Source: Candidatus Eremiobacteraceae bacterium
GTDB lineage: Bacteria; Vulcanimicrobiota; Vulcanimicrobiia; Eremiobacterales; Eremiobacteraceae
NCBI GenBank assembly: GCA_035314825.1
Contig: DATFYX010000011.1
Location: 1 to 64,000, forward strand
Reading direction: 5' to 3'
Length of the DNA: 64,000 nucleotides
The notes under the pieces were generated by a model. It was given only the letters and a program-made list of their open reading frames with translations, had not been told where the DNA came from and ran no database searches. How positions within the stretch are numbered: the stretch's first letter is position 1; each line of letters opens with the position of its first letter. Of this stretch, positions 16,036 to 62,804 are shown in pieces. The position numbers and the translations under genes were made by a program.

Positions 16036-16061
16036 CCCGCGCTCAAGAGCGCGGGACTACA
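16036..16061 (-). repeat. REP-like palindrome, family C
   Basis: The stem arms CCCGCGCTC and GAGCGCGGG are separated by AA and followed on the plus strand by ACTACA. Read on the minus strand it is TGTAGT followed by the hairpin. It is 9 bases from a family B copy, forming a tandem pair. Confidence 0.65.
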
Positions 16062-16070
16062 TAGTGCCGT

Positions 16071-16096
16071 GCGCGTTCAAAGAACGCGCTACTACA
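16071..16096 (-). repeat. REP-like palindrome, family B
   Basis: The arms GCGCGTTC and GAACGCGC flank AA, followed by TACTACA on the plus strand. On the minus strand it reads GTAGTAG then the hairpin. It lies 7 bases past the stop of the small secreted gene at 16104. Confidence 0.75.
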
Positions 16097-16103
16097 GCGG
16101 GGT

Positions 16104-16313
16104 CTAGCCGCTGAGCTCGAGCATCTTGGCCTGGAAGTCGCCGGCGATGTCGATCGGGGCGATGTGCACGTCGAGGCCCGGCTGCGGCCGGGTCGTGATC
16201 GTCGTGACCGTTGTGACCGCTTTGACCGGGAGGATAGCGGCGTCGGTCGGCGGCGTCTGAACCGCGGCGGGGCTTGAGAGCGTGAGCAGGATTGCCAGTA
16301 CAGTTGCTGTCAT
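16104..16313 (-). CDS. Small secreted protein of unknown function
   Basis: A 69-aa protein consisting of a signal peptide (TATVLAILLTLSSPAAVQ) and a short Thr/Val-rich mature part ending in DFQAKMLELSG. No family is recognised. The start ATG 16313 is preceded by GGTGGAG. A long extension upstream in this frame is antisense to the DUF4239 gene and is rejected. The gene is divergent from the DUF4239 gene and is followed by two REP-like palindromes. Confidence 0.6.
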   Translation of the reverse strand: MTATVLAILLTLSSPAAVQTPPTDAAILPVKAVTTVTTITTRPQPGLDVHIAPIDIAGDFQAKMLELSG

Positions 16314-16397
16314 GATATTCTCCACCTTTCGGGTGTCTTGGGATGGAGTCGCGACGTCCAACCGGAACATGCCGCTGACCGACGAATGGTTCACATC

Positions 16398-17207
16398 ATG
16401 AGCTTCCTTTATAGCATTCCCCCGGTGATCTTGCTCCTCGTCGCGGCCGCCATGGGGCTGCTGTTCGCGTGCGGCGGACAGCTCTACGTGCACCGGCATT
16501 TCGGCGGAAGCGGCTTCGTCCGGCATAACGAGGTCGGCGGGTTCATCATCTCCGTCGTCGGAACGCTCTACGCGGTGGTGCTCGGTTTCCTCACCGTCGT
16601 CGTGTGGCAGCACTTCGCGGATGCGCGCGATCTCGTCGCGGTCGAGGCGTCTGCAGCCGGCGACGCGTGGCACACGGCGGTGGGCCTCCCGCCGGCGGAG
16701 CGCACCAGCGTGCGCCGCGATATGCTCGACTACGCGAACCTGATGGTGAACGGCGAATGGCCGCTGATGCGCAAGGGTGAATTCGAACCAGACGGCGACA
16801 TCATCCTCATGGATGCGATCGGCGCGGCCGGCTCGTTCGTACCGGCCAATCCGCGAGAGTCCAACGCGCAGACGCTGACCATGCAGCAGCTCGCCGCGGT
16901 CCACGACGACCGGTCTCGGAGGCTTGAGTCCAACACCTCGGGTGTCGAAGGGTTCGAATGGCTCGTGCTGCTGATCGGCGCGACCTGCGTGGTCTGTTTC
17001 TGCTGGCTGTTCGGCTTGGCCAACCCGCGGGCGCACATGCTGATGACGGCAGCCGTGACAATCGTCGTGGTCTCGATCCTCGTGTTGCTGTTCGAACTAC
17101 AGTACCCGTTTCGCAGCCACCTCGGCGTCGGGACGGACGCCTGGCGCGGCATCATCAATCACATCCAACTGATGCAAGCCGGCCCGCAGATGAATATGAA
17201 GATGTAG
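16398..17207 (+). CDS. DUF4239 (bestrophin-like) membrane protein
   Basis: A 269-aa inner-membrane protein with two N-terminal helices (PPVILLLVAAAMGLLFACGG and IISVVGTLYAVVLGFLTVVVW) and two C-terminal helices (WLVLLIGATCVVCFCWLFG and MLMTAAVTIVVVSILVLLFEL). They flank a long soluble segment. The GTLYAVVLGFLTVVVW(Q/E) and ELQYPFRS motifs are diagnostic of DUF4239, a family described as bestrophin-like. The transport function is not proven. ATG 16398 is chosen because the upstream codons do not look coding. Convergent with the DUF202 gene. Confidence 0.85.
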   Translation: MSFLYSIPPVILLLVAAAMGLLFACGGQLYVHRHFGGSGFVRHNEVGGFIISVVGTLYAVVLGFLTVVVWQHFADARDLVAVEASAAGDAWHTAVGLPPAERTSVRRDMLDYANLMVNGEWPLMRKGEFEPDGDIILMDAIGAAGSFVPANPRESNAQTLTMQQLAAVHDDRSRRLESNTSGVEGFEWLVLLIGATCVVCFCWLFGLANPRAHMLMTAAVTIVVVSILVLLFELQYPFRSHLGVGTDAWRGIINHIQLMQAGPQMNMKM

Positions 17208-17229
17208 CGGCCCCGGGCTTAGGATCGGC

Positions 17230-17604
17230 TCAGCGGACGAAGAGGAGCGCAGCGCCGAGGAGCGACGCCATCAATATGATGCCGCTGAGGATCCATACGT
17301 GTCCCTGGCCGGGGCGATAGTTCTGCTGCTCGATGCCGCGATAGGTCAGGCCGAAATGAACCGTGCCCCAGATCAGCACCAATATTCCGATCAGCACCAT
17401 GCCGGTGCCCAATTGCTCGGCGCTGCGCAACGTGTGGCCGGTGGTGGTCGCCATCGAGATCACATTCTTCTCGATCAGATAGAGCGAGAAGCGGTTGACC
17501 GAGATCCCCAGGGAGATCAGCGACAGCGCCGTGCGCACGAACGCCAGATAGGTGCGCTCGTTGGCGAGATAGTCGCGCACGTGCGCGTTTTGGTCTATGC
17601 TCAT
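17230..17604 (-). CDS. DUF202 family (YidH-like) membrane protein
   Basis: A 124-aa protein with the DUF202 N-terminal signature YLANERTYLAFVRTALSLISLG followed by two more hydrophobic segments (TGMVLIGILVLIWGTVHFGL and VWILSGIILMASLLGAALLF). Function of the family is unknown. The gene starts 41 bases after the aldo/keto reductase and closes a five-gene minus-strand run that begins with the OsmC protein at 21424. Confidence 0.88.
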   Translation of the reverse strand: MSIDQNAHVRDYLANERTYLAFVRTALSLISLGISVNRFSLYLIEKNVISMATTTGHTLRSAEQLGTGMVLIGILVLIWGTVHFGLTYRGIEQQNYRPGQGHVWILSGIILMASLLGAALLFVR

Positions 17605-17645
17605 GACCCGCGCAATTCTGCGCGCCGCAATGCGAACCTTCGGCC

Positions 17646-18632
17646 TCAGGCGTCGACAGTGCTCATGTCCGCATAGCGCTGGCCGGCGAATGCGCCAGGA
17701 CGCGCGACCTCGTCGATGCGTTCAATATCTTCTTTCGATAGCACGACGTCGACCGCGGCGCAGTTCTCGTCGAGGCGGGTGCGACGCCGCGTGCCCGGGA
17801 TGGGCACGATGTCCTGCCCTTGGTGCAAGAGCCACGCCAGTGCGAGTTGCGCCGGCGTGATGCCCTTCGCCGTCGCGATCTTCTTGAGCACGTCGACAAG
17901 CTCGAGATTGTGCTTGAAGTTGCCGGCTTGGAACCTCGGGAAGCGCTCGGTCTTGCGGCCGTCGCCGTCGGCGAGCTTGGTGGGGTCGGTGATCGCGCCG
18001 GTGAGCAGGCCGCGCCCGAGAGGACTATAGGCGACGAATCCGATGCCGAGCTCGCGGCACGCCGGCAGTATCTCGCTCTCCACGTCGCGCGCGAACAGCG
18101 AGTACTCGGTCTGCAGCGCGGTGATCGGGTGCGTCTTGTACGCGCGGCGCATCGTCGCCGGCGCGGCCTCGCTCAGGCCCAAGTAGCGGACCTTGCCCTC
18201 CTTCACCAGTGAGGCCATGGCGCCCACCGTCTCTTCGATCGGCACCGTCTTGTCGACGCGATGTTGATAGTACAAGTCGATCGTGTCCACTTTGAGACGC
18301 TTGAGAGAATCCTCGCATGATTTTCGAACGTAGCCGGGCTTACCGTTGACGCCGAGGAACGAGCCGTCTTCCCCTCGTTCGTTGCCGAACTTGGTGGCGA
18401 GGAAGACCTTGTCGCGTTTGCCGGCGATCGCTTTGCCGACCAGGATCTCGTTCTTGAACGGTCCGTACATGTCGGCCGTGTCGAGGAAGCTGCAGCCGAG
18501 CTCGATGGCATGATGGATGGTCGCGATCGATTCTTCGTCGTCGGTCGGGCCGTAGAACTCCGACATGCCCATGCAGCCGAGACCGATCGCCGACACGACG
18601 GGGCCGTTGAGACCGAGGGTGCGCTCTTTCAT
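17646..18632 (-). CDS. Aldo/keto reductase
   Basis: A 328-aa TIM-barrel oxidoreductase with the full AKR catalytic set: Asp and Tyr in [10 protein letters not shown], Lys in VFLATKFG and His in DLYYQHRVD. The NADPH-binding end [16 protein letters not shown] is also present. Similarity is to the AKR13/IolS-like group ([19 protein letters not shown]). It would reduce aldehydes or ketones in the cytosol; the substrate is unknown. ATG 18632 begins MKERTLG, the expected N-terminus. It is 25 bases downstream of the cyclase-ATPase gene and probably shares its transcript. Confidence 0.92.
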
Positions 18633-18657
18633 CTGCGTATCTCCGTGAAGAAGGGGC

Positions 18658-20616
18658 CTACGAGTAAAGGAACCGAGAGGTGAGAACGGCCATGGCCTGA
18701 CGCAACCGAGCCTCGACCGCCGGGTTCTCCCCGGTGCCGACCTGGCGCAGCGCCGCCCCGATCCACCGCCGCCCCTCGGCCTCGAGTCCGCCGTGCCACC
18801 AGAACATCTCCAGCGCGCCGGCCAGCGCGCCGCCGAGCGCCGCGTCGCGACCCTTATCGAGCGACCACTCCAAGACTGCGCGGAAGTTCTCGAGCTCGGG
18901 ATCGAGGTGCGCAAGCCACTCGTTCAACGGGATCGTGTCGAGCTTCGTCTCGGCCTCTCGTGCGACGCCGAGGAAAAATTCGGCATAGCGGCGCGCAAGG
19001 CTCTCGCGCTCGCCGCTCGCCGTCTGCTTCTCCAACCCGTATTCGCGCATCGATTCCAGCAGCCGGTAGCGCTCCAGATCGCCGCCCGTATCCGCGACCA
19101 CGAGTGATTTGTCCACCAGCGACGACACTAGATCGAGCATGTTCGCGTCGTCGATGCCGTCACCCGCACACACGGCGGCGGCGGCATCGAGCGTGAAAGT
19201 GCCGGCGAACGTGGCCAGCCGGCCGAACAGCGTCCGCTCTTGCGGTGAAAGCAGATCGTAGCTCCAGTCGATGAGCGCGCTCAGCGTCTTTTGACGAGGC
19301 AAGGCTGTGCGGCTGCCGCCGGTCAGGACCCGGAAGCGCTCGTTCAAGCGTTGCGCGAGGTTGGGAACGCTCAGCACTTTCACGCGCGCCGCGGCGAGCT
19401 CGATGGCGAGCGGAATGCCATCGAGGCGCCGGCAGATCTCGGCGACGGCAGTCGCGTTGTCGTCGGTGAGCTCGAAGCGCGTGTCGGCGAACGAGGCTCT
19501 GTCGATGAACAGCGCGATCGCGCCGTATCGCAGCGCTTCTTCGGTCCGTAGCCGGGTGACCGGTTCGGGCACTGCAAGCGAAGGCAGCCGATATAACGCC
19601 TCGCCGACGATACCGAGCGCCTGGCGCGACGTGGCCAAGATACGTACGTCGGGGCACGACCGGCAGATCGCATCGGCCAATGCGGCAACCGCCTCCAAGA
19701 GGTGCTCGCACGTGTCGATGATCAGCAACAGCTGCTTGCGTTTGAGCCATTGCGGAATCGGCCCGTCGACACCATACCCCTCCGGCTTGCTCGCGCTCAA
19801 CACTTTGGCGATCACGCTTGAGACCAGGGCCGGATCGCTGATGGGCGCGAGCTCTGCAAGCCACACCCCGTCGGCGTAGCGGTCGAGGAGCTGTGCGCCT
19901 GCTTGCACCGCGAGCCGCGTCTTGCCGACGCCACCCGCGCCGGACAGGGTCAGCAACGCGTGTCTGTCGAGCAGGGACTTGACCTCTTTGAGGTCGTGCT
20001 CGCGGCCCCGGAAACTCGTCGGCTGGATCGGCAAGTTGTTCGGCAACGCATCGAGCGACTTGAGCGGCGGGAACTCGTTCAAGAGGTCGGCGGCGCTCAG
20101 TTGCCAGACTTGTTCGGTGTGCGTGAGGTCCCGGAAGCGGTGAGAGCCGAGGTTCGTCAGCGTCGCGGTGTCCGGAAGGTCGTGGTGGATGAGCTCGCGC
20201 GTCGCAGCAGACACGAGCGTCTGCCCGCCGTGGCCGACGGACATGAGTCTCGCGACGCGATTGACCATTGGACCGAAGTAGTCTCCGTCGCGCTCGTCGG
20301 CGTGGCCGGTGTGGATGCCGATGCGGACGCGCAGCCCATCAACGGCCGAGAAGTCCGCATCCGCGAGAGCGCGCTGCGCCTCGAGTGCGGCTTTCACTGC
20401 GTCGAGCGGGGTGTGAAAGGCGGCGCAGAACGCGTCGCCGACGGTCTTGAAGACGTAGCCCCGATGCTTCTCGATCGTCGCACGCATCAGCGCATCGTGA
20501 TGCGCAACGGCGGCCTTCATCGTCTCGCGATGCGTTTCCCAGCGCTGGCTGCTGCCTTCAACGTCGGTAAATACAAACGTGACCGTGCCTGAGGGCAAAG
20601 GCCCGGAGCTGTTCAT
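18658..20616 (-). CDS. Class III cyclase with ATPase domain, lacking the C-terminal TPR region
   Basis: A 652-aa protein with a class III cyclase domain (FTDVEGS with Asp18, VGDAF with Asp61) and an NB-ARC/AAA-like ATPase (Walker A GAGGVGKT near 226-233, Walker [10 protein letters not shown] near 298-306). It is nearly colinear with the gene at 1-2387 but stops right after [24 protein letters not shown]. The paralog continues there into TPR repeats. The Walker B follower is Thr where the paralog has Asn. The last dozen residues ([11 protein letters not shown]) do not resemble the paralog, suggesting a truncation. It sits 6 bases after DUF4242 and 25 before the aldo/keto reductase. Confidence 0.9.
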
Positions 20617-20622
20617 CTATTC

Positions 20623-20895: not shown

Positions 20896-20905
20896 CGATC
20901 TGTGT

Positions 20906-22391: not shown

Positions 22392-22427
22392 GAAGATTTC
22401 CGCAGGCCCTGGCTTAACCTAGCGGGC

Positions 22428-27175: not shown

Positions 27176-27201
27176 GCGGTCGAATGAATTCGACCGCTCC
27201 A
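27176..27201 (-). repeat. REP-like palindrome, family A
   Basis: The arms GGTCGAAT and ATTCGACC flank GA, followed by GCTCCA on the plus strand. On the minus strand this is GGAG plus hairpin. It abuts the ribF stop codon directly. Confidence 0.8.
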
Positions 27202-30870: not shown

Positions 30871-30936
30871 GCGGTCGAATGAATTCGGCCGCACCATATC
30901 TATCTCGTCCACGGTCGAGTAAACTCGACCGCTCCA
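30871..30936 (-). repeat. Two tandem REP-like palindromes, family A
   Basis: Copy one is 30871-30896 with right arm ATTCGGCC, giving a T-G wobble in the stem, and tail GCACCA. Copy two is 30911-30936 with arms GGTCGAGT and ACTCGACC, a compensated base-pair change, and tail GCTCCA. They are 14 bases apart in the same orientation between rbfA and the TPR-like gene. Confidence 0.75.
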
Positions 30937-34077: not shown

Positions 34078-34431
34078 CTATTTCCTTTCGTGTGCGCGTT
34101 CAAACGAGCGCGCTACTACATCTGTGGGCACTGTAGCTATGCCCTTGTATCGTTTGTTCTTCTTCACGCGCTCGACGCACTGCGCCGAGCACAGGTATGC
34201 GCCCCTGCCCTCGCGTCGAGCGGCCGGATCAGGCTCCCATTGCCCGTCCGCGGCGCGCACGAAGCGCAGCAGCGTGTGCTTGTCCGAGCGCACGCGGCAT
34301 CCGACGCACTGCCGGATCGGTACGCGCTCGGAAGCTCCATCGTCATTCGGCCGCGCCAGTCTTTTCGGCGTCGTCGGCGGCGTCCTCCGTTGCGTCAGCG
34401 GCCTGTTCGGCTTCCGCGGGCTCTTCGTCAC
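34078..34431 (-). CDS. ylxR: YlxR family RNA-binding protein
   Basis: A 117-aa protein with the YlxR/DUF448 core [26 protein letters not shown] and [22 protein letters not shown]. YlxR sits between nusA and infB in most bacteria; in some it acts as an RNase P modulator or nucleoid-associated regulator. GTG 34431 overlaps the nusA 3' end by 89 bases. The final residues ([14 protein letters not shown]) are encoded by and just after a family B REP element at 34094-34120, so the natural C-terminus has been replaced or extended by the repeat. Confidence 0.88.
34094..34120 (-). repeat. REP-like palindrome, family B, translated within ylxR
   Basis: The arms GCGCGTTC and GAGCGCGC (one T-G wobble) are followed by TACTACA on the plus strand. 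On the coding strand it reads GTAGTAGCGCGC and encodes VVARSFERA of YlxR, about five codons before the stop. Confidence 0.75.
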
Positions 34432-39794: not shown

Positions 39795-39856
39795 GCGGTC
39801 GAATAAATTCGACCGCTCCATGGGTTGCGGACGGTCGAATGATTTCGACCGCTACA
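39795..39856 (-). repeat. Two tandem REP-like palindromes, family A, between divergent genes
   Basis: Copy one is 39795-39820 with loop AA and tail GCTCCA; copy two is 39831-39856 with one mismatch in the right arm (TTTCGACC) and tail GCTACA. The second tail gives a full GTAG on the minus strand, linking family A with families B and C. They fill most of the space between pxpB and the DUF255 gene. Confidence 0.78.
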
Positions 39857-39876
39857 ACGGCGAAGCGGGTGCGACC

Positions 39877-41667
39877 ATGGCCGCCAAACTCCATTTCTCC
39901 CCCCGCCCCAATCGCGCCGCCGAGATCAACTGGCAGCAATGGGGACCCGATTCGTTCGCTCACGCGCAGGCCGAACACAAACCTGTGTTGTTGGCGATCT
40001 CGGCCGTGTGGTGCCACTGGTGCCACGTGATGGACGAGACCTCGTATTCCGATCCTGCGGTGATCGACCTCATCAACGACCGGTATGTGCCTATCCGGGT
40101 CGACAACGACCAACGCCCCGATATCAATGCGCGCTATAACATGGGCGGCTGGCCCACCACGGTGATCCTCACGCCCGAAGGCGAGATTCTCCGCGGAGGC
40201 ACGTACATACCGCCTGAGGCCATGCTGCCGTTCCTCCAGCAGGTCTCCGATCTCTATGCCGAGCCGGCCAACCGGCTCGAATTCGCGCGGCGCATCGCCG
40301 AGGTGCGCGCCAAGCGAACCCACACGCCTACAGCGCCAGCGGGCCAGCTGGACGCCGGCGCGCCGGCAGCGATCGTCGCCGCGGCGTCCGAGGCGTTCGA
40401 TGACGAGTTCGGCGGCTTCGGCACCGAGCCGAAGTTCCCGCAGGCGGACGTGCTGCAATTCCTCTTGGACTTCTACAGCCGCCACCCGGACGGGCGCGTG
40501 CAGACGATGGTGCAGATGTCACTGCGGGCGATGGCGGGCGGCGGCATGTACGACCACGTCGAAGGCGGCTTCTTCCGCTATTCGACCACACGCGATTTTG
40601 GCGTTCCGCATTTCGAGAAGATGCTCGAAGACTTGGGCGGCCTGCTGCTCGCCTGCGCGCGCGCAAGCGCGCTCTTCGGCGACGCGGCGCTCGGGCGGGT
40701 CGCGGTCGACACCAAACGCTACTTGGACGCGACCCTGTGGAGCGCCGACCGGCGCGGCTATGGCGGCAGCCAGGATGCTGATGAGACGTATTATCAGCTC
40801 GATAAGGACGGTCGAATGAATTCGACCGCTCCATATGTCGATGGGACGATTTATACGTCGTGGAACGCCGAGGCCGCGCATGCGCTGATCTGCGCCGGCC
40901 CGCTGCTGTCGGCGCAGGGCGAGGATGCCGGCGCGTGGATCGGGCGCGGCGTCGAGATCCTCGAGATGCTGTGGTCGAGCATGCTCGTCGACGGTCTGAT
41001 GACCCGCTATTCGGACGGCACGGCGCACGTGCGCGGCTTGCTCGGCGATCAGGCGTGGAGCGCATGGGCTGCGCTTGCGGCCTTCCAAGCCACCGGCGAG
41101 ATCCGCTGGCTCGAACGCGCCCTGTCCCTGGTCCGCGCAAGCGACCCGCTCTACGACCAGTCTGCGGGGGCGTATCTCGACCGGCTGCCCGATGCCGCCG
41201 AGCCTGGCCGCGTGTCGGAGCCCGTCGCGCCGATGCCCGAAAACGCGCTCATGGCGCGGGTGCTGATAGCGCTGAGCGCCTTCACGGGCGAGGAAGCCTT
41301 GGCGGAGCGGGCGCGCACCGTGCTCGAGCGCTTCACCGCGACGTACGCTCGCATGGGAGTGTTCGGCGCGTCCTACGCGGGCGCGGTGCTCGACGCGTTA
41401 GAGCCGCCGTTCGACATCAAGCTGGTGGGCGAGCACGGCTCCGCCGCGATGAACGCGCTGCGGGACCGCTTGCTCGCCGTCGCAGCGCCGCCGCTGCGCC
41501 TCAACGCGATCGATCCGCGCGATCGGGCGCGCGCGAGCGCTCTCGATGCCGGCGAGACCGACGCGCCACGGGCAATCGTGTGTCGCGGTGCGGTATGCTT
41601 CGCGAGCGCGAAGGAGGCCGAGGAAGTTTTGGCCGCCGTGCGCCGAGCGGACTCGCCCGCGTCTTGA
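39877..41667 (+). CDS. DUF255 thioredoxin-domain protein (YyaL/SSP411 family)
   Basis: A 596-aa protein. An N-terminal thioredoxin-like DUF255 domain has the active-site motif WCHWCHVMDETSY (Cys-x-x-Cys) and NMGGWPTTVILTPEG. A six-hairpin glycosidase-like helical barrel follows: DEFGGFGTEPKFPQ, GGGMYDHVEGGFFRYSTTRDFGVPHFEKMLED and MPENALMARVL. Function of the family is unclear. ATG 39877 begins MAAKLHFSPRPN; an in-frame ATG at 39820 lies inside the REPs. A complete family A REP at 40808-40833 is translated in frame (DGRMNSTAP). Confidence 0.88.
   Translation: MAAKLHFSPRPNRAAEINWQQWGPDSFAHAQAEHKPVLLAISAVWCHWCHVMDETSYSDPAVIDLINDRYVPIRVDNDQRPDINARYNMGGWPTTVILTPEGEILRGGTYIPPEAMLPFLQQVSDLYAEPANRLEFARRIAEVRAKRTHTPTAPAGQLDAGAPAAIVAAASEAFDDEFGGFGTEPKFPQADVLQFLLDFYSRHPDGRVQTMVQMSLRAMAGGGMYDHVEGGFFRYSTTRDFGVPHFEKMLEDLGGLLLACARASALFGDAALGRVAVDTKRYLDATLWSADRRGYGGSQDADETYYQLDKDGRMNSTAPYVDGTIYTSWNAEAAHALICAGPLLSAQGEDAGAWIGRGVEILEMLWSSMLVDGLMTRYSDGTAHVRGLLGDQAWSAWAALAAFQATGEIRWLERALSLVRASDPLYDQSAGAYLDRLPDAAEPGRVSEPVAPMPENALMARVLIALSAFTGEEALAERARTVLERFTATYARMGVFGASYAGAVLDALEPPFDIKLVGEHGSAAMNALRDRLLAVAAPPLRLNAIDPRDRARASALDAGETDAPRAIVCRGAVCFASAKEAEEVLAAVRRADSPAS
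40808..40833 (-). repeat. REP-like palindrome, family A, inside the DUF255 coding region
   Basis: A complete copy with arms GGTCGAAT and ATTCGACC, loop GA and tail GCTCCA lies in frame within the gene. It encodes GRMNSTAP near residue 312, between YYQLDKD and YVDGTIY. The reading frame is uninterrupted on both sides. Confidence 0.85.
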
Positions 41668-42465: not shown

Positions 42466-42600
42466 GCGCGTTCAAAAGAACGCGCTATTACGACTTAGCG
42501 CGCTACTACAATTGTAGTAGCGCGTCGCTTTTCGTGCGCGGAGATGTTGCGCGTTCAGAGAACGCGCTACTACAAAGACGCCCGCGCTCAAGAGCGCGGG
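42466..42600 (-). repeat. Cluster of REP-like palindromes, families B and C
   Basis: The cluster holds a B copy at 42466-42491 with tail TATTAC and a B half-copy ending TACTACA at 42510. An inverted copy starts TGTAGTAG at 42513, and these two tails form a perfect palindrome centred on AATT. A full B copy follows at 42549-42574, and a C copy at 42581-42600 lacks the usual tail. The mix of direct and inverted copies resembles the BIME arrangements of REP elements. Confidence 0.7.
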
Positions 42601-54720: not shown

Positions 54721-55845
54721 CTATCCTTTGTAGGTGATGCGGTAGATCGAGCCGCTCAGATCGTCGCTGACGTAGAGCGATCCGTCCTGGCCGACCGCCA
54801 CGCCCACCGGGCGTCCGCTGACGCTCTGGTTCTCGCTGAGCCAACCAGTCGCGAAATCTTCGACGTGATCGGGCCGGCCGTTCTTGAAGAAGACGGCTAC
54901 CACTTTGTATCCGGTCTTCACCGAGCGGTCCCAGGAGCCGTGGTAGGCGACGAACAGCGCCCCGCGATAACGCGCCGGAAACTGCGAGCCGTGGTAGAAC
55001 GCGATCTGCAGCGGCGCGGAGTGCGCCTGGAGATTCAGCGCGGACGGCTGCGTGCCCACGCACTTGGTCGGATCCTTATACTCGGGATTGGGTACGCGAT
55101 CACCGTCGCCGGCATAGCAGTAGGGCCAGCCGTAGTTCCCACCGTCCACGATCTGGTCCACTTCGTCGGGCGGCAGGTCGTCGCCGATGTTATCGCGCCC
55201 GTTGACAACGGCCCACAATCTGCCGGCGTCGTCGAACGCGAGGCCCGACGCGTTGCGCAAGCCAAACGCATAGATGCGGCCGTTGCCGCCCTCCGCGTCG
55301 TAGCGCAGGACGGTCGCAAAGCGCGGGTCGGTTTCGGCGCAGACGTTGCACGTCGAGCCGCTCGAGACGAAGATCGTGCCGTCGGCGGCGATCGCGATGG
55401 CGCGGTGATTGTGCACTCCGCCTTCGGGCATGTTCGAGAACAGCGTCTCGTGCGGCGCCCCTTCGGCTGGAGGATAGTGCAACTTGGTCACACCCGACCA
55501 CGACGCCACGTAGAGATCGTCGCCGTGAAATACAAGGCCATGGGCGACCGGCAGCCCGCTGATCACCACTTTAGGTTCTGCGTCGGGTGCCATTCCGGGA
55601 GAAATCGCGACGACACGGTCGCGTCCTAGCTCGGACACGACGACATCGCCGTTCGGTGCGACCGCCAGGAAGCGCGCGGTGGGCACCCTGCTCGACACGA
55701 TCGAGATGGTGAATCCGAGCGGAACGTGGAGTTGACCGACAGGCACCGCCGCGCGTGCGGTGCAACCGGCGAGGGCGACGCAAAGGGCGAGGAACGCGAT
55801 GAGCGGTCGAATGAATTCGACCGCTCCATTTCTGCTCTTAACCAT
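54721..55845 (-). CDS. Sorbosone-dehydrogenase-like beta-propeller lipoprotein (second copy)
   Basis: A 374-aa lipoprotein with a PQQ-dependent sugar/sorbosone dehydrogenase-like propeller: GRDRVVAISPG, GLPVAHGLVFHGDDLYVASW, HNHRAIAIAADGTIFVSSGS, AFGLRNASGLAFDDAGRLWAVVNGRDNIGDDLPPDEVDQI and VGVAVGQDGSLYVSDDLSGSIYRITY. The signal ends LALCVALAGC. ATG 55845 lies within the upstream gene's last codons (TATGGTTAA). The 5' end of the signal sequence (NGAVEFIRP) is encoded by a family A REP at 55803-55828. It is a paralog of the next gene upstream. Confidence 0.88.
   Translation of the reverse strand: MVKSRNGAVEFIRPLIAFLALCVALAGCTARAAVPVGQLHVPLGFTISIVSSRVPTARFLAVAPNGDVVVSELGRDRVVAISPGMAPDAEPKVVISGLPVAHGLVFHGDDLYVASWSGVTKLHYPPAEGAPHETLFSNMPEGGVHNHRAIAIAADGTIFVSSGSTCNVCAETDPRFATVLRYDAEGGNGRIYAFGLRNASGLAFDDAGRLWAVVNGRDNIGDDLPPDEVDQIVDGGNYGWPYCYAGDGDRVPNPEYKDPTKCVGTQPSALNLQAHSAPLQIAFYHGSQFPARYRGALFVAYHGSWDRSVKTGYKVVAVFFKNGRPDHVEDFATGWLSENQSVSGRPVGVAVGQDGSLYVSDDLSGSIYRITYKG
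55803..55828 (-). repeat. REP-like palindrome, family A, inside a lipoprotein signal sequence
   Basis: A complete copy with arms GGTCGAAT and ATTCGACC and tail GCTCCA lies in frame just after the start codon of the downstream sorbosone-dehydrogenase-like gene. It supplies the only nearby Arg of the signal n-region (EFIRP). Confidence 0.8.
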
Positions 55846-57055
55846 AGGTGACGCGATAGATATACCCATTTGAGTCGTCGCTGATGTACAGCGAACCATC
55901 TGGTCCGACCGCCAGCCCGACGGGACGGCCGGTGACCGAGTTGCCCGGCGTCAGCCAGCCCGAGACGAAATCCATCGGCGCACCGGGCACGCCGCCGGCG
56001 AACGGCACGAAGACGACCTTGTACCCGGTTGGCGGCGAGCGATCCCACGACCCGTGGAACGCGACGAACGCGCCGCCCTTATATGTGGCCGGGAACATCG
56101 AGCCGTAATAGAACACGATGCCGAGCGGCGCGGAATGCGCCTGCAGCGGCTGCGTCGTCGGCAGCTGTCCGTTGCAGTTGGGCGCAGGCGTCGCGAGGTC
56201 GGGGTTGATCTGGCGCGCGCCGGTCAGGTCCGGATAGCACTGCGGCCACCCGTAGTTACCGCCGGCGACGACCTTATCGAATTCGTCAACCGGAAGATCG
56301 GTGTGGTTCGGAGGGAGATCGTCGCGCTGATTGACGACCATCCACAGTTGTCCGCTCTGATCGAACGCGAGGCCGCTGCCGTTGCGCACGCCGGTCGCGT
56401 AGATCTGCGGGTTCGAGCCGTCGCCGTTGGCGTGGATGATCGTCGCCAAGATCTGCGAGCCCTCGTTGCCGAGGTTCGTATCCGAACCCGACGATTCGAA
56501 GATGCTTCCGTCGGGAGCGATCGCCAGCGAGCGGTTGTTGTGATCGCCGTTTTGCGGCAGGCCGTTATACAGCGTCTGGGTCGTGGTGCCGGCCGGATAG
56601 TTCTTGATCACGCTGAAGCCGGTCCAGGTCGCGATATAAAGATCGTTGCCGTGAAAACCGAGCCCGTGGGGCCGCTGTAGCCCACTGGCAAGCACGGTCG
56701 GAGGCGCGTCGTATGGCGCGCCCGCCTTGATCGCTACGACCTGGCCGTTGCCGGTTTCCGAGATGATCAGGTCGCCGTTGGGCGCGACGGTCATGAAACG
56801 CGCGCCCGGCACGTTTTCCGCCACCATCGTGATCTTGAAGCCCGGGAGCAGATTCAGTGCCATCGGCGGGGCCGGGCCGGATGTTGGCGAGCCGGAGGGT
56901 GAGGGTGCCTGGGTGGGACCGACAGGCGTCATTGGACCTGGCATCGACGAGGACGTGCAGGCCGCCAGAAATGAGGCGATGGTGAGAGACATGGCTAGCG
57001 CGTTCAAGGAACGCGCTACTACATTTGGGTTTGATGCATCTAATTCGCGCTTCAT
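55838..57055 (-). CDS. Sorbosone-dehydrogenase-like beta-propeller lipoprotein (first copy)
   Basis: A 405-aa lipoprotein with the same propeller as its downstream paralog (HGLGFHGNDLYIATW, HNNRSLAIAPDGSIFESSGSD, GVRNGSGLAFDQSGQLWMVVNQRDDLPP, VGLAVGPDGSLYISDDSNGYIYRVTYG). The lipobox is FLAACTSS, and a Pro/Ser/Gly-rich linker follows. ATG 57055 is supported by AAGGG about 5 bases upstream. A family B REP at 56998-57023 is translated as VVARSLNA in the signal n-region. Enzymatic activity with PQQ is inferred from the family. Confidence 0.88.
   Translation of the reverse strand: MKRELDASNPNVVARSLNALAMSLTIASFLAACTSSSMPGPMTPVGPTQAPSPSGSPTSGPAPPMALNLLPGFKITMVAENVPGARFMTVAPNGDLIISETGNGQVVAIKAGAPYDAPPTVLASGLQRPHGLGFHGNDLYIATWTGFSVIKNYPAGTTTQTLYNGLPQNGDHNNRSLAIAPDGSIFESSGSDTNLGNEGSQILATIIHANGDGSNPQIYATGVRNGSGLAFDQSGQLWMVVNQRDDLPPNHTDLPVDEFDKVVAGGNYGWPQCYPDLTGARQINPDLATPAPNCNGQLPTTQPLQAHSAPLGIVFYYGSMFPATYKGGAFVAFHGSWDRSPPTGYKVVFVPFAGGVPGAPMDFVSGWLTPGNSVTGRPVGLAVGPDGSLYISDDSNGYIYRVTYG
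56998..57023 (-). repeat. REP-like palindrome, family B, inside a lipoprotein signal sequence
   Basis: The arms GCGCGTTC and GAACGCGC with loop AAG, followed by TACTACA on the plus strand. It lies in frame near residues 12-19 of the first sorbosone-dehydrogenase-like lipoprotein and encodes VVARSLNA. Confidence 0.8.
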
Positions 57056-57172: not shown

Positions 57173-58267
57173 ATGCGAACGCGTATCATCTTCGCAATCG
57201 TGGCGGCCATCACCCTCGCTGGTTGTTCCGGCGGCGGCGCGGGCAGCCCGTTCTCCAATCCGTCGAACGGCAGCGGCGGAACCCAAACCCAGATGAGCCA
57301 ACAAGAAGCCGCGCAAACGGGGGCCAACTCGGCGATGTCCGAGATCGGTCGCGCCGGTCTGGACAGCTCGCTCTTCTCCGGCTCGGTCGGCGTCGTGCTG
57401 TCCACCCAGAAAGCGCCGATGTCGGTCCAGCCGGCCACGGCGTGCAACAACGGCGTCATCAAGACGGTGACGGTCATCAGCCCGACCGAGACGACCTACG
57501 ACGTGCAGCTCTTCTTCGACAACGCCTGCACGCAGCTGCGCCGCGACTCGCTCTCGGACGTGAAGATCCCGAATCCGTCGACCGAGAACATCACACGCAC
57601 GATCAAGAACTACAACAACTCCGGCCTGCTGCTCTCGACGCGCGTGGCCAACTACTCGGTCACCGGCAGCCCGGGGAACTTCTCGGCCGTCGTGACCAGC
57701 GCGCTGACCATCGGCACCGAGAGCTCGCCTGAAGAGCAAGACGGGCACCAGCTGACGGTCGCGCCGCAGAACGCCACCACCTGGACGATCGCCGGCAACT
57801 CGGCGCGCATCGAGAACATCGGCGTGCCGAGCATCAACGAGTCGTTCGGCGAGGCGGCGCTGCTGCAGAACACCACCGCGACGGTCGATCCGTCCAACGA
57901 CGTCACGTTCGCGGGCATGCGCAACAAGACGTTCTACAAAGGTGCGCTCGGCAGCCTGAGCATCCCGGCGAACCCGCCGTTCTCGGTCAGCGGCGGCACG
58001 CAGACCGGCGCAGGCTCGATCTCCGGTTCGGTCGAGTTCGACGCCAACGACAACCTGCTCAACGTCGCGCTCAACGGCACGCTCGCCAACGGCGACACGA
58101 TCGTGGTCACGAGCTCAGGCTCAGGTCCGACGATCGCCATCAACGGCACGATCTCCAGCGGCGGCACGACGCTTGCGACCTTCTCGGTCGACCGCTTCGG
58201 CGACGGCCTGATCACCTATGCGAACGGTTCGCAAGCGGTGATCATGGACTGGCACGTGGTCAAATAA
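57173..58267 (+). CDS. Lipoprotein of unknown function
   Basis: A 364-aa protein with a lipoprotein signal (IFAIVAAITLAGCSGGG). No family is recognised. The mature part is Ser/Thr/Asn/Gly-rich and beta-prone throughout (TVTVISPTETTYDVQLFFDNACTQL, VANYSVTGSPGNFSAVVTSALTIGTES, GSISGSVEFDANDNLLNVALNGTLANGD). Two cysteines in ATACNNG and NACTQL could pair. ATG 57173 is preceded by AAAGGG. It is divergent from the sorbosone-dehydrogenase-like pair, and a double REP and terminator follow. Confidence 0.7.
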   Translation: MRTRIIFAIVAAITLAGCSGGGAGSPFSNPSNGSGGTQTQMSQQEAAQTGANSAMSEIGRAGLDSSLFSGSVGVVLSTQKAPMSVQPATACNNGVIKTVTVISPTETTYDVQLFFDNACTQLRRDSLSDVKIPNPSTENITRTIKNYNNSGLLLSTRVANYSVTGSPGNFSAVVTSALTIGTESSPEEQDGHQLTVAPQNATTWTIAGNSARIENIGVPSINESFGEAALLQNTTATVDPSNDVTFAGMRNKTFYKGALGSLSIPANPPFSVSGGTQTGAGSISGSVEFDANDNLLNVALNGTLANGDTIVVTSSGSGPTIAINGTISSGGTTLATFSVDRFGDGLITYANGSQAVIMDWHVVK

Positions 58268-58269
58268 GG

Positions 58270-58312
58270 ACGGTCGAATAAATTCGACGGTCGAATAGAT
58301 TCGACCGCTACA
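58270..58312 (-). repeat. Fused double REP-like palindrome, family A
   Basis: Two family A copies share the central ATTCGACGGTCGAAT, so the first copy has lost its tail and the second ends GCTACA. It begins 3 bases after the lipoprotein stop and could be read as a compound stem-loop. Confidence 0.75.
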
Positions 58313-58325
58313 AGGGAACAAGGAA

Positions 58326-58350
58326 AGGGACGGGGCCATGACCCGTCCCT
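58326..58350. terminator. Hairpin terminator between convergent genes
   Basis: AGGGACGGG and CCCGTCCCT form a perfect 9-bp stem with loop GCCATGA, flanked by AA and TTCGCCTTT. It lies between the lipoprotein gene (+) and the cysteine-rich gene (-) and would serve either direction. Confidence 0.65.
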
Positions 58351-58378
58351 TCGCCTTTCCCGGAGGGGTTGGGACGCT

Positions 58379-58726
58379 CTAGTCGGTGTGCGCGCGACGC
58401 TCGGGTTCTGCGGAACCGCGCATCGGATTGTTGGGGCAGCGCCGGCACGCATAGGTGGCGATCGTGCGGAACGCGGCCTTGTTGACTTCGCGGCGCGCGG
58501 TCAGGCGGAAGCGGGTGTACGCGTCATCGAAGGCGCTCTCGACGCCGTTGCCGGTGAACAGGTCCATCGTGAAATGTTCGCAGCACGCGGCGCACATATT
58601 GTCGCTCTTGAAGAGCGGGCAACGCATGCAGCCGTCGCCATGATCGCCGAAATTGTTCCATGACTCGGGGGTGGGGTTCAATGGACCCTCGAGCAGGCTA
58701 TGAAGCAGCTCGTCCACGTTGGTCAT
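58379..58726 (-). CDS. Cysteine-rich small protein, possible metal or Fe-S binder
   Basis: A 115-aa cytosolic protein with seven cysteines in pairs: CMRC (residues 33-36), CAACC (45-49) and CRRC (near 93-96), plus several histidines. The spacing suggests zinc or iron-sulfur binding. No family is recognised. ATG 58726 begins MTNVDELLHSLLEG. It is divergent from the zinc-ribbon gene. Confidence 0.6.
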   Translation of the reverse strand: MTNVDELLHSLLEGPLNPTPESWNNFGDHGDGCMRCPLFKSDNMCAACCEHFTMDLFTGNGVESAFDDAYTRFRLTARREVNKAAFRTIATYACRRCPNNPMRGSAEPERRAHTD

Positions 58727-58780
58727 GCCGGTATGACTAGGGCAGCGGTAAATTTGTGTCGGCCCCGGAACCCCTTTTTC

Positions 58781-58930
58781 ATGGACGAACAGACGTTCAC
58801 GGTCGGCCAGCTCGCCGGTCCTGGGACCTACCGCTGCACGACCTGCGACCGGGTGGTGACCGAGTACGCCTTGTCCTTTGAGATCGAGCCCTGCCCGTGT
58901 GGCGGGACCGAGTTCCGGAGGGTAGATTGA
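58781..58930 (+). CDS. Short zinc-ribbon protein
   Basis: A 49-aa protein made of one zinc ribbon: TYRCTTCDRVVTEYALSFEIEPCPCGGTEF, with Cys pairs CTTC and CPC. ATG 58781 begins MDEQTFTVGQLAGPGTYRC. Such ribbons often bind nucleic acid or act as small modulators. Its stop shares a base with the start of the truncated hydrolase. Confidence 0.7.
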   Translation: MDEQTFTVGQLAGPGTYRCTTCDRVVTEYALSFEIEPCPCGGTEFRRVD

Positions 58931-59217
58931 TGGCAGGCCGCCCGCCTTTGGTGCTGTTGCGCGCTTGGCCCCTGGACGCCCGGATGTGGCAAGCTCAGGT
59001 CTTGGCCCTCGGGCCCGAGGGACCGGTGCTGGCTCCGGATCTTCCAGGATTTGGAAACGAGCCTCTCACCCCTCAGCCATCTCTAGACGATTGGGCGCGA
59101 CGTCTTTCCGGCTCCCTGCGCGGCAAAGGCATCCAAAGCGCGGTGCTAGCCGGGTGCTCCATGGGCGGCCCGGTGAACGACGCGCTGCGCGCGTTTTGGA
59201 GCGCGGCCGGCGGCTGA
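58930..59217 (+). pseudogene. Truncated alpha/beta hydrolase
   Basis: A 95-aa frame covers only the N-terminal part of an alpha/beta hydrolase: LVLLRAWPLDARMWQAQVLALG, APDLPGFGNEP and the nucleophile elbow VLAGCSMGGPVND. It then stops at TGA 59217, where the family normally continues for about 150 more residues with the catalytic Asp and His. The usual HG oxyanion loop before PLD is replaced by RAW. No continuation is found before the convergent Hcp-like gene, so the 3' part is deleted. Start TGATG overlap with the zinc-ribbon gene is preserved. Confidence 0.65.
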
Positions 59218-59229
59218 CCTTCGCGCGTC

Positions 59230-59775
59230 CTATTTCTCTGACAGGTGCGTCGAGCACCATGCGACCGACTCATAGGTGAGAACGATCCTCTCGGTGGCCG
59301 GCGCAGACGGACCCGAACGGGTGATCTCCATATCCTTGACGGCTGCTTGTGAGAGCGTATAGACGATGGAGCTACTCGATGGGCCGCCGGCTTTGCGCAG
59401 CGTCAGTTTGACCGTCGGCAGCGACTCATTTGTCGACGCCAGGCTGAAGAGCTTCGGCGACGCGCTATCCGCCGCTTTGGTTAGCGTGATCTCGCCGCGC
59501 TGGCGCCTGCCGCCCGGCAGGCCCGTCATCGAGTTCATCGACGACGTCACGGCCGGATCGACGACCACAGAAATCAACGGTATCCCCGGCTGGCCTGGTA
59601 GGACGAGCATGTCGCCCGACCCAGGACCGGGTTCGCAGGCGTTGACCGGCTGCAGCTTGTCGACGTTCAACGATTTCGACGGCGACATTGATGGCGGGGC
59701 CGTGGCCGGGAGTGCCGGCTCGATGATCGCCAGCGACATCAGCGCGAGCGAAGCTGTAAACGTGCGGAAGCGCAT
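59230..59775 (-). CDS. Secreted Hcp-like protein (type VI tube-protein family)
   Basis: A 181-aa protein with a signal peptide (FTASLALMSLAIIEPALPATA). The body reads like an Hcp/TssD barrel: PGIPLISVVVDPAV, RQRGEITLTKAADSASPKLFSLASTNESLPTVKLTLRKAG and the last strands SIVYTLSQAAVKDMEITRSGPSAPATERIVLTYESVAW. Hcp forms the hexameric tube of type VI secretion systems, where it has no signal peptide. No tss genes are near. Cysteines occur at NACEPG and AWCSTH. It is probably a lineage-specific exported relative. Confidence 0.65.
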   Translation of the reverse strand: MRFRTFTASLALMSLAIIEPALPATAPPSMSPSKSLNVDKLQPVNACEPGPGSGDMLVLPGQPGIPLISVVVDPAVTSSMNSMTGLPGGRRQRGEITLTKAADSASPKLFSLASTNESLPTVKLTLRKAGGPSSSSIVYTLSQAAVKDMEITRSGPSAPATERIVLTYESVAWCSTHLSEK

Positions 59776-59797
59776 GTGAGACGTCCTTTACCGTCTA

Positions 59798-60310
59798 TTA
59801 CGACGCGGGGGCCGGGATCGTCACGCGAAACGGTTTGAACTTGCCCTTGGCGCATGAATTGCACTGGAAGATCAACTTGGTCGGCACGTAGGTCTTGTCG
59901 ACCGGGAAAAGCGCCGTCTGTTTCACGGACGCGCCTTGCTGGATGTTCAGCGCCACCGGCGTGAAAAAATGGCCCGGGATCTCAAACGAGATGTCATCCT
60001 TGTCGGCCAGCGTGTAGCTGACGAGTTCACCCCACGAGCTCGGCGTGCCATTGCGGATGATGGCGGTGACGACCATGACCTTCTGCGTCGGTCCAGGCAC
60101 CACTGACTCAGGATGATCGGCCGGGGTGGCGTCGCGGACTTCGACGACTTTGAAGCGCAGCACGCCGTTCCACAGCGTGTCGCCGACCTTCCCGGAGATC
60201 GCGTCGACCTGATTGGCGCCGCCCGGCGCGGGTGTCGGAGCTGCGCACACCGAGGCAGTGCCGACCAGCGCGAGCAGAGCTGAGAACGCGAGAATGCGAA
60301 GCGATGACAT
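59798..60310 (-). CDS. Secreted DUF4352-like protein
   Basis: A 170-aa protein with a signal peptide (LRILAFSALLALVGTASVCA) and an immunoglobulin-like beta sandwich resembling DUF4352: GDTLWNGVLRFKVVEVRDA, TQKVMVVTAIIRNGTPSSW and SYTLADKDDISFEIPGHFF. It also contains FQCNSCAKG with two Cys. ATG 60310 begins the signal peptide. It is 22 bases upstream of the Hcp-like gene on the same strand, so they are probably co-transcribed. Confidence 0.7.
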   Translation of the reverse strand: MSSLRILAFSALLALVGTASVCAAPTPAPGGANQVDAISGKVGDTLWNGVLRFKVVEVRDATPADHPESVVPGPTQKVMVVTAIIRNGTPSSWGELVSYTLADKDDISFEIPGHFFTPVALNIQQGASVKQTALFPVDKTYVPTKLIFQCNSCAKGKFKPFRVTIPAPAS

Positions 60311-60407
60311 GCGATGCGTCCTTTCGGATTGTGCGATCGTACGAGAGTTGCGGACGCGCCGTTCGAGGGTCGCCAAGGATAACCCGTTTAAGCGCTTGCT
60401 TGGCTGC

Positions 60408-60433
60408 ACGGTCGAATAAATTCGACCGCTCCA
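60408..60433 (-). repeat. REP-like palindrome, family A
   Basis: The arms GGTCGAAT and ATTCGACC with loop AA, followed by GCTCCA on the plus strand. It lies between the HhH-GPD and DUF4352-like genes. Confidence 0.8.
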
Positions 60434-60451
60434 TTTCGCCTGCTTAGATCG

Positions 60452-60982
60452 TTAGGCGCGTTTGCCGTTCTTGATGACCCACGGCATGTCGGCGTCGCAC
60501 GAGTACTTGCGCCAGCCGGGGAGCTTCACGCCGCCGAATTGGCCGAGGATACGCACTGCCGCCGTCGCCTTGGCCTTGCCGAACCCAGGCAGCGCGAGCA
60601 TGCGCTCGTAGACCTGCTCCGCGTCAGTCGTGCCTTCCCACACGCGCGCGCCTTTGCCGCCGTACTCCTTTGCGATCGTCGCGCACAGCGCGCGCACGCG
60701 CTTGGCCATCATGCCGGGATAGCGATGGATCGCGGGGCTTTCGCGGAACACTTTGTCGAGGCGCGCCGGCGGTATCGCCGCGATCTTCTTCGCGTCGATC
60801 GTGCCGAGCCGGCGACGCAGCTCGTATGGACCGCTCATCGCCTTCTCGGTGCGCACTTGCTGTTCGAGGCACAACCCGATCAGCAGCGCCGTGCCGTCTT
60901 TGGCGAGCAGCTCATTCGCGGCATCGTTGGGCGTGAACGGATACAAGGACTTTGCCATGGTGCGGCGCACTTTGTCCGCCAT
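60452..60982 (-). CDS. HhH-GPD family DNA-repair-like protein
   Basis: A 176-aa protein of the small HhH-GPD family (TIGR03252 type): FTPNDAANELLAKDGTALLIGLCLEQQVRTEKAMSGPYELRRRLG, then the helix-hairpin-helix LALPGFGKAKATAAVRILGQFGGVKLPGW. The usual Asp of glycosylases after the GPD loop is not obvious. It may recognise damaged bases. ATG 60982 overlaps the start of the divergent DUF885 gene; ATG 60958 (MAKSLYPF) is a likely alternative. Confidence 0.8.
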   Translation of the reverse strand: MADKVRRTMAKSLYPFTPNDAANELLAKDGTALLIGLCLEQQVRTEKAMSGPYELRRRLGTIDAKKIAAIPPARLDKVFRESPAIHRYPGMMAKRVRALCATIAKEYGGKGARVWEGTTDAEQVYERMLALPGFGKAKATAAVRILGQFGGVKLPGWRKYSCDADMPWVIKNGKRA

Positions 60983-62753
60983 GAGCCGTTCTCCCGTCAC
61001 GCGCGGCGCCTTTGTGCGCGGTGCGCTGTGCGTCATGCTCGTCGTGGCCGCGTGTGCGCCATTCTCCACAGCGACGCGCGCCGCGCAGACGGGTTCCGAT
61101 GCGTTTCAAAAACTTGTCGAACGGTATGTCGCTGAATCCGAAGCTCGCGATCCGCTCTTCGCCGACAGCATCGGCGTGCATACCTATGATGACAAACTGC
61201 CCGACTACTCGCCCAGCGGCCGCGCCGATACCGATGCGTGGGAGGCCGCTTGGCGCACCCAGTTCGCAGGGCTCGACAGCGCCAAGTTGACGCTTGGCGA
61301 GCGCGCGGATCTGCGCGCGCTGCTCGACCAGATCGACGCCGATCAGCTTGAGGCAAAGACGATCCGCCCGTACGAGACGGATCCTTCCATCTATACAGGG
61401 GCGATCGGCGATGCCGTCTACGAGCTCACGAGCCGCGACTACGCGCCGTTGGAGCAACGCCTGCAAAGCGTCGCGACGCGCATCCGTTCCATCCCGGATC
61501 TCGTGCGCGCGGCCGAGGCGTCGCTGTCGCATCCCACCCGCGTCGCCGCCGAGCTTGCCGTGCAGCAGAACCAGGGCAACATCGATCTGTACAGCCGCGA
61601 CCTGCCGGCGCTGGCCAAGTCCGCATCGGCGCAGACCCAAGCGATGCTCGAAGCCGATCTGCCGGCCGCGATCGCGAGCCTCAAGGATTTCCAGACGTTC
61701 CTCGCGGGCCCGCTGCTCGGGCAGGCCGACGCCAACCCGCGCGTCGGCGCCGCGGTGTTCGACGAGGAGCTGCGGCTGGTCGACGGCACGGATACGCCGC
61801 GCGACGTGCTGGTCGCCCGCGCCCGCGCTGACTTCGACCGCACGCGAAGAGAGATGCTGCGGCTCGCCACGCCGCTGTACCACAAACTGCTGCATGAAGA
61901 GCCGCCGCTTGAGTCCACCGAAGACGCGCAGATCGACGCGATCGTGAGGCCGGTGCTCGACAAGCTAGCGGATCATCATCCGGCGCGCGACGCGGTGCTG
62001 GCGACGGCCAAGAGCGATCTCGCCGGCATCCAGTCGTTCTTGGAACGCGACCCGGTCGTGCCGCTGCCCGTGCCAGACACGCTGCACGTCGCACCGACCC
62101 CTGAGTTCTTAGCAGGCGTCACGGGCGCCGGGCTGGATCCGCCCGGCCCGTTCACGCCGCTGGCCGGATCCTACTACTATATCGATGAGATCCCGGCGTC
62201 GTGGTCAGCCCAGCGCGTCGCCTCGTATCTGCGAGAGAACAACGACTACGAGATGCGCATCCTTTCGATCCACGAAGCGATCCCGGGCCATTACGTGCAG
62301 TACCGCTACAACGCCCTGACGCCTTCCCTCGTGCGCCGCGTGTGGCCAAACGGTTCGTTCGTCGAAGGCTGGGCGGTGTACGGCGAAGGCATGATGCTCG
62401 ACGCGGGGTACGGCGGCGGCGATGTTGCGCTGCGGTTGTTCCAATTGAAATGGCGCTTGCGCGAGTACGCCAACGCGATCATCGACGCCGAATACCATGC
62501 AGGCGATCTAAGCGAACAACAGTGCATGCGCTTGCTCGCGCAGGCCTTTCAGGAACCTGCGGAGGCCCAGACGAAGTGGCATCGCCTGGAGCTTTCGCAC
62601 GATCAGTTATCGAGCTACTTCGTCGGACTCGACGCGATCAGCCAGGCGCGGTTCGCTCACCCGGGCAGCGTCGCCGCCTTCAATAAGAGCCTGTTGGGCA
62701 TGGGCTCGGTCGAGCCGCGTTTCATCGAGGCGCTGCTGAACGCATCGCCGTAG
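60981..62753 (+). CDS. Secreted DUF885 family metallopeptidase-like protein
   Basis: A 590-aa protein with a signal peptide ending in a lipobox-like segment (ALCVMLVVAACAPF). The DUF885 HExxPGH motif is LSIHEAIPGHYVQYRYN. Conserved blocks FVEGWAVYGEGMMLDAG and QAFQEPAEAQTKWHRLELSHDQLSSYFVGL follow. It is paralogous to 49118-50905. ATG 60981 gives the signal peptide and shares bases with the ATG of the opposite-strand HhH-GPD gene. A longer frame upstream is antisense and rejected. Confidence 0.85.
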   Translation: MSRSPVTRGAFVRGALCVMLVVAACAPFSTATRAAQTGSDAFQKLVERYVAESEARDPLFADSIGVHTYDDKLPDYSPSGRADTDAWEAAWRTQFAGLDSAKLTLGERADLRALLDQIDADQLEAKTIRPYETDPSIYTGAIGDAVYELTSRDYAPLEQRLQSVATRIRSIPDLVRAAEASLSHPTRVAAELAVQQNQGNIDLYSRDLPALAKSASAQTQAMLEADLPAAIASLKDFQTFLAGPLLGQADANPRVGAAVFDEELRLVDGTDTPRDVLVARARADFDRTRREMLRLATPLYHKLLHEEPPLESTEDAQIDAIVRPVLDKLADHHPARDAVLATAKSDLAGIQSFLERDPVVPLPVPDTLHVAPTPEFLAGVTGAGLDPPGPFTPLAGSYYYIDEIPASWSAQRVASYLRENNDYEMRILSIHEAIPGHYVQYRYNALTPSLVRRVWPNGSFVEGWAVYGEGMMLDAGYGGGDVALRLFQLKWRLREYANAIIDAEYHAGDLSEQQCMRLLAQAFQEPAEAQTKWHRLELSHDQLSSYFVGLDAISQARFAHPGSVAAFNKSLLGMGSVEPRFIEALLNASP

Positions 62754-62778
62754 AGGGTCGCTCTCGAAAGGCGCGTGC

Positions 62779-62804
62779 GCGGTCGAATGAATTCGACCGC
62801 TCCA
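62779..62804 (-). repeat. REP-like palindrome, family A
   Basis: The arms GGTCGAAT and ATTCGACC with loop GA, followed by GCTCCA. It lies 25 bases after the DUF885 stop and just before the ribosome site AGGAGG of the next gene. Confidence 0.8.

What the first reader, a model, noticed from the sequence alone, without database searches (positions are those of the whole stretch)
16036..62804. Three palindrome families share a REP-like GTAG/GGAG end
About 18 short (about 26-bp) palindromes recur across 47 kb. Their stems are unrelated: A GGTCGAAT/ATTCGACC, B GCGCGTTC/GAACGCGC, C CCCGCGCTC/GAGCGCGGG. Yet each is followed by the same kind of tail on the plus strand: GCTCCA or GCTACA (A), GCTACTACA (B), GACTACA (C). 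Read on the minus strand this is a GTAG or GGAG tetranucleotide followed by a hairpin, the architecture of REP sequences recognised by REP-associated tyrosine transposases (RAYT, IS200/IS605-like TnpA). Families A, B and C would then be different REP classes with a common tetranucleotide. I know of no description of such a set in this lineage. No RAYT lies in the window.
Basis: partly seen in the sequence, partly recalled or inferred. Interest (0 to 1): 0.85.

Follow-up and report, generated by a model that had tools for sequence, protein, structure and literature searches.

The report
Oriented REP repeats, transposase not found
The window carries a new set of tiny mobile DNA hairpins of a known kind (REP sequences) in a little-studied bacterium of the phylum Eremiobacterota; the enzyme that should move them is present in its relatives but not found in this genome, and the hairpins point the same way along long stretches of chromosome, which hints at how they jump.

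Summary
The 2.55-Mb genome holds 149 tagged A elements plus about 20 B and 20 C stems; controls give 0. Read on the tag strand each is GKAG followed by a hairpin (A = TGKAG-CGGTCGAA-TTYA-TTCGACCG): GTAG-type REP sequences. It succeeds next door: 10 of 11 other genomes of the family (Ca. Eremiobacterota) encode a RAYT, most flanked on both sides by inverted GTAG/GGAG hairpins, and two relatives' REPs share family A's outer stem and loop. A congener lacks the element at most comparable sites, so A expanded recently. Conclusion: recently mobile REPs whose transposase is lost or unassembled. Two features are less ordinary. First, 91 of 105 loci are single copies and clusters run head-to-tail, unlike the inverted REPIN pairs thought to be the mobile unit. 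Second, orientation is strongly concordant along contigs, also where gene direction is neutral, as single-strand insertion at replication forks would give.

The parts
16036..16061 (-). REP class C with tag (CCCGCGCTC-AA-GAGCGCGGG-ACTACA on plus; GTAG on minus)
16071..16096 (-). REP class B with tag
27177..27201 (-). REP class A with GGAG tag
30872..30896 (-). REP class A, degenerate stem and tag (GCACCA)
30912..30936 (-). REP class A with compensated stem GTCGAGT and GGAG tag, head-to-tail with the previous copy
34094..34120 (-). REP class B with tag
39796..39820 (-). REP class A with GGAG tag
39832..39856 (-). REP class A with GTAG tag, head-to-tail with the previous copy
40809..40833 (-). 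REP class A with GGAG tag, inside a predicted ORF (39820-41667)
42466..42492 (-). REP class B, degenerate tag (TATTACG)
42549..42574 (-). REP class B with tag
42581..42600 (-). REP class C stem, tag lost
55804..55828 (-). REP class A with GGAG tag
56998..57023 (-). REP class B with tag
58272..58289 (-). REP class A-like stem without tag, abutting the next copy
58288..58312 (-). REP class A with GTAG tag
60409..60433 (-). REP class A with GGAG tag
62780..62804 (-). REP class A with GGAG tag

Best explanation
A, B and C are classes of GTAG-type REP sequences: non-autonomous elements of about 25 nt that act as a single-stranded hairpin preceded by GTAG/GGAG. Family A was spread recently by a RAYT (TnpA-REP, an HUH Y1 transposase) of the type still found in sister genera, which recognises tag plus hairpin on one DNA strand and pastes a single copy elsewhere, preferentially into one strand of the replication fork. 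The RAYT is not found in this genome: most likely lost, possibly left out of the draft assembly. Shown: the repeat, tag, covarying stems, copy number, mostly intergenic location, sites empty in a congener, RAYTs with inverted matching REPs in sister genera, polarity along contigs. Inferred: that such a RAYT moved A (and B and C), that insertion is single-stranded at the fork, and that the enzyme was lost.
For: 149 tagged A copies, controls 0; tags on 72 of 80 A stems; compensated stem pairs; 94 of 127 sampled elements intergenic although predicted genes cover 93% of the sample, with 25 convergent and 13 divergent sites against a background of 29 and 96 regions; exact A 107 in G000, 1 in G001, 0 in 12 other family genomes; element missing at most orthologous G001 sites; RAYTs in 10 of 11 family genomes outside the genus, all nine aligned members matching NF047646, nearest solved relative 4er8 TnpArep; inverted tagged REPs on both sides of 12 of 14 RAYT loci, with A's outer stem and loop at G005 and G012; orientation agreement 71:19 within contig stretches and 22:5 at convergent or divergent sites.
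Against: No Y1 transposase of any kind in G000, G001 or G002. No RAYT with B-type flanks seen, and C's link to G006 is only a resemblance. Polarity is not total: C34 and C71 of this genome and the 597-kb C11 of G006 are mixed. GC skew is too weak to fix replication direction, and the groEL, dnaK and ffh stretches disagree with the anchor rule.
Confidence: 0.82

Rival explanations
1. The RAYT is present in the organism but missing from the draft assembly or its bin, so the REPs belong to a live system as in sister genera.
For: Draft MAG of 89 contigs, 97.25% complete. RAYT genes are short and flanked by repeats; in G005 several contigs begin inside REP arrays, and a short contig could drop out of the bin. 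Most A copies are near-identical (107 exact).
Against: Two congeners also lack it, although G002 is only 72% complete and G001 has few REPs. Three stem classes would usually need more than one RAYT, all missing together. Few A copies lie near contig ends in the listed places.
Confidence: 0.25
2. The hairpins are RNA-level elements (terminators or mRNA stabilisers) amplified for that function, not mobile DNA.
For: Enriched between convergent genes and depleted between divergent ones. Such roles are proposed for REPs in general (PMC3733652).
Against: No T run follows the stems. Orientation follows the contig even where gene direction is neutral. The tag is conserved outside the stem, RAYTs with matching inverted REPs exist in sister genera, and copies are absent from orthologous sites. 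A later role in RNA is not excluded.
Confidence: 0.06
3. The polarity comes from selection on a polar DNA motif (as for KOPS or Chi) rather than from insertion at forks.
For: Such motifs show the same strand pattern along replichores (established knowledge).
Against: The same kind of polarity is seen for A, B and C together and for the different REP of G006, and recent species-specific copies already show it.
Confidence: 0.08
4. The palindromes are operator sites for a DNA-binding regulator.
For: Palindromes of 18-20 bp in intergenic DNA.
Against: Asymmetric tag and loop, several stems with one tag, depletion at divergent promoters and 33 of 127 copies inside ORFs.
Confidence: 0.02

Closest known systems
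GTAG-tagged REP superfamily (Di Nocera et al. 2013, PMC3733652), including the Stenotrophomonas SMAG classes
   Same: Stem of 6-13 bp, loop of 2-4 nt, GTAG at one end, several classes in one genome, intergenic and convergent preference, some copies inside genes.
   Different: Lineage (Ca. Eremiobacterota; a find for that name gave 0 hits in the paper). [quoted passage not shown] Both GGAG and GTAG tags in family A.
REPtron: RAYT gene with cognate inverted REPs (E. coli and S. maltophilia models, PMC8266576)
   Same: Sister genera have RAYTs with tagged hairpins upstream and inverted ones downstream; RAYTs match NF047646 and 4er8.
   Different: Not found in this genome or genus. The sister-genus REPtrons carry head-to-tail REP arrays on each side.
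REPIN (Bertels and Rainey 2011, PMC3116915)
   Same: Non-autonomous REP-based elements spread by a RAYT.
   Different: Here loci are single REPs (91 of 105) and clusters have one orientation (13 of 14), not inverted pairs.
IS200/IS605 family elements
   Same: Y1 HUH enzymes acting on hairpins in single-stranded DNA, with insertion into the lagging-strand template (described in PMC6006769); the polarity here fits.
   Different: No gene in the element and no left and right end pair.

Membership tests
GTAG-type REP | Palindrome of 20-40 bp with a short loop, stem kept by compensated changes | tested here: met
GTAG-type REP | Unpaired GTAG-like tag on one side of the hairpin | tested here: met
   72 of 80 A stems tagged; most B and C stems with TACTACA or ACTACA
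GTAG-type REP | High copy number, mainly intergenic | tested here: met
   149 A copies, 19 B, 20 C; 94 of 127 intergenic
GTAG-type REP | Mobility: presence or absence at orthologous sites | tested here: met
   Absent at most orthologous G001 sites, shared at two; alignments at 70-86% identity, so exact ends are uncertain
REPtron (RAYT plus inverted cognate REPs) | RAYT gene in the same genome | tested here: not met
   PF01797, NF047646 and alignment A1 find none in G000, G001 or G002
REPtron (RAYT plus inverted cognate REPs) | RAYT with HUH and catalytic Tyr flanked by inverted REPs in close relatives | tested here: met
REPtron (RAYT plus inverted cognate REPs) | Binding or cleavage of the REP by its RAYT | not testable with these tools
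   needs biochemistry
REPIN | Inverted REP pair as the repeated unit | tested here: not met
   91 of 105 loci single; 13 of 14 clusters same orientation
IS200/IS605-like single-strand insertion | Orientation bias with respect to replication | tested here: inconclusive
   Strong concordance along contigs and agreement with rpoB/rpoC, rplK, recA and atp, but no origin mapped and some stretches mixed

The most novel reading that the evidence does not exclude
In this family the single REP hairpin, not the inverted REPIN pair, is the transposing unit, and it inserts with fixed polarity relative to replication (GTAG strand on the lagging-strand template), so that REP singlets record fork direction in a genome whose GC skew is almost nil.
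Probability: 0.45. Interest if true: 0.68.

Novelty: new member of a known kind. Interest (0 to 1): 0.48.

Why it matters
How RAYTs spread REPs is unresolved (PMC8266576 calls the mechanism poorly understood), and REPIN work treats REP singlets as dead remnants (PMC3116915, PMC8049555). Here singlets are young, numerous and polar, sister genera hold RAYTs beside REPs with the same outer stem and loop, and one species seems to have lost the enzyme. That gives natural with/without comparisons and a direct test of lagging-strand insertion. It also extends the REP/RAYT system to Candidatus Eremiobacterota, for which the library search found no description.

Tried and rejected
GC skew, strand-balanced third-position skew and intergenic skew as replichore markers: near zero; whole-contig GC and TA skew correlate with orientation but TA skew is confounded by gene strand, so not used. 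No dnaA anchor was found in the stretches fetched. The first pattern for G005/G012 REPs was mis-specified by two bases and returned almost nothing; the corrected one gave 314 in G005. A lenient hairpin-plus-tag scan gave too many chance hits and was tightened; the G001 hairpin total is probably inflated by runs of N and is not used. Terminator, operator and polar-motif readings were considered (see rivals).

Full report
Observation. The 18 palindromes are at the stated places, in three stem families, all facing the same way. Fourteen have an intact tag; 30873 (GCACCA), 42466 (TATTACG), 42581 (none) and 58272 (none) do not. In the whole genome (G000, 2.55 Mb, 89 contigs; the window is the first 64 kb of contig C11) there are 107 exact A stems, 19 B and 20 C, and 149 A elements with tag when the six inner bases (two stem pairs and the loop) are left free. 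Reversed-pattern controls are zero.

Anatomy. I read 787 kb of the genome as stretches. It holds 127 tagged elements (92 A, 13 B, 22 C) against 0 in the reversed sequence. On the tag strand A reads TGKAG-CGGTCGAA-TTTA or TTCA-TTCGACCG. At positions that the search did not fix, the C before the stem is 98% and the A after CTMC is 94%. Inner pairs vary with compensation (A-T, G-C, C-G), and family C has four compensated stems with one tag, so it is the hairpin that has been kept.

Lineage. A scan of genome contigs with the family's RAYT alignment returns as best hits contigs mostly titled Candidatus Eremiobacteria or Eremiobacterota, with lengths equal to those of the anonymous family members (for example G012:C39, 29,810 bases, and JANWLL010000039.1). 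The window's species is in the same family; I have no species name for it.

Transposase. PF01797, NF047646 and the family alignment A1 give nothing in G000 or its two congeners. Of the other 11 genomes of the family, 10 have at least one RAYT. Nine aligned RAYTs share D-H-(V/I)-H and an invariant Y and N four residues apart near the C-terminus; all nine match NF047646, and the nearest solved relative is 4er8, TnpArep. In 12 of 14 loci examined, tagged hairpins stand on both sides in inverted orientation. Stems differ between genera. G005 and G012 have GKAG-CGGTCGAG(C/A)-TT(T/C)A-..., that is family A's outer stem and loop with one extra pair. G006 has GTAG-TGCCGGGGC-TTTA-GCCCCGG, which resembles C (GTAG-TCCCGCGCTC-TT-GAGCGCGGG). 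B has no counterpart among these.

Mobility. Exact A is 107 in G000, 1 in G001 and 0 in the other 12 family genomes. Aligning G000 sites with orthologous sites of G001 shows no element in G001 at most of them, for example 30 extra bases inside an ORF at C34:11342, while C34:39935 and C41:23605 have a related tagged A copy in G001. So A existed in the common ancestor and expanded in the G000 line. With no enzyme found, loss after expansion is the simplest reading; an assembly gap is the main rival.

Unit. Of 105 loci, 91 are single copies, and 13 of 14 clusters have all copies in one orientation. This is not the REPIN pattern, for which PMC3116915 and PMC8049555 hold that singlets are decaying, immobile remnants. 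PMC3733652 lists some families made mostly of single elements, so singlets as such are not new.

Polarity. With clusters collapsed, 80 of 96 sites share their stretch's majority orientation (none of 20,000 simulations reached this), and neighbouring sites agree in 60 of 79 cases (P = 4e-6). Each site agrees with the rest of its stretch 71 to 19 (P = 3e-8), and 22 to 5 (P = 0.0015) at convergent or divergent sites, where local gene direction is neutral. C11 is 18 to 0 with coding sequence split 47/53. In G006, which has a RAYT and a different stem, C8 is 17 to 0, the sampled end of C9 0 to 11 and C10 4 to 20, while the 597-kb C11 is mixed. The GTAG strand tends to be the majority coding strand (G000: Spearman -0.50 between plus-strand coding fraction and tail orientation, P = 0.015; G006: all six stretches). 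It is also the strand of rpoB/rpoC, rplK, recA and the atp operon in both genomes (by majority), whereas the groEL, dnaK and ffh stretches of G000 disagree. If those operons run with replication, as is usual, the GTAG strand is the lagging-strand template, where IS200/IS605 enzymes act (PMC6006769). This last step is inference: no origin was mapped. Papers found by searching REP, RAYT and strand or orientation terms did not describe such polarity in the passages shown, which is a limited search.

Verdict. Real, and well explained as GTAG-type REPs of a RAYT system in a lineage for which I found no description: a new member of a known kind, with singlet units and replication-like polarity as the parts worth pursuing.

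Noticed in passing
L047 (G000 C11:87939-87970), L052 (C41:16563-16590), L171 (C31:5516-5543): A few elements carry a tag on both sides of one hairpin, so that either strand reads tag plus hairpin; how they arise is unknown.
   Followed up: no
window 39820-41667, and 33 of 127 sampled elements: About a quarter of the REPs lie inside predicted ORFs, for example 40810 within a 615-aa ORF; at C34:11342 the extra stretch is 30 bases, a multiple of three.
   Followed up: partly
L225-L244 and L252-L255 (G006 contigs C8, C9, C10, C11): REP density and polarity vary by region in G006: C9:1-80000 has none while C9:80001-143193 has 11, all minus; the 597-kb C11 is sparse and mixed.
   Followed up: partly
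G005 contigs C2, C5, C8, C12: Several contigs of this relative begin inside or next to REP copies, so REP arrays may break assemblies there.
   Followed up: no
L043 (G018:C3): A strong Y1_Tnp match (142 bits) lies beside a TnpB-like ORF, so ordinary IS200/IS605 elements occur in a sister family of the same class.
   Followed up: no
G124 (same phylum): One genome has 12 matches to the RAYT model, far more than the one to three of the window's family.
   Followed up: no
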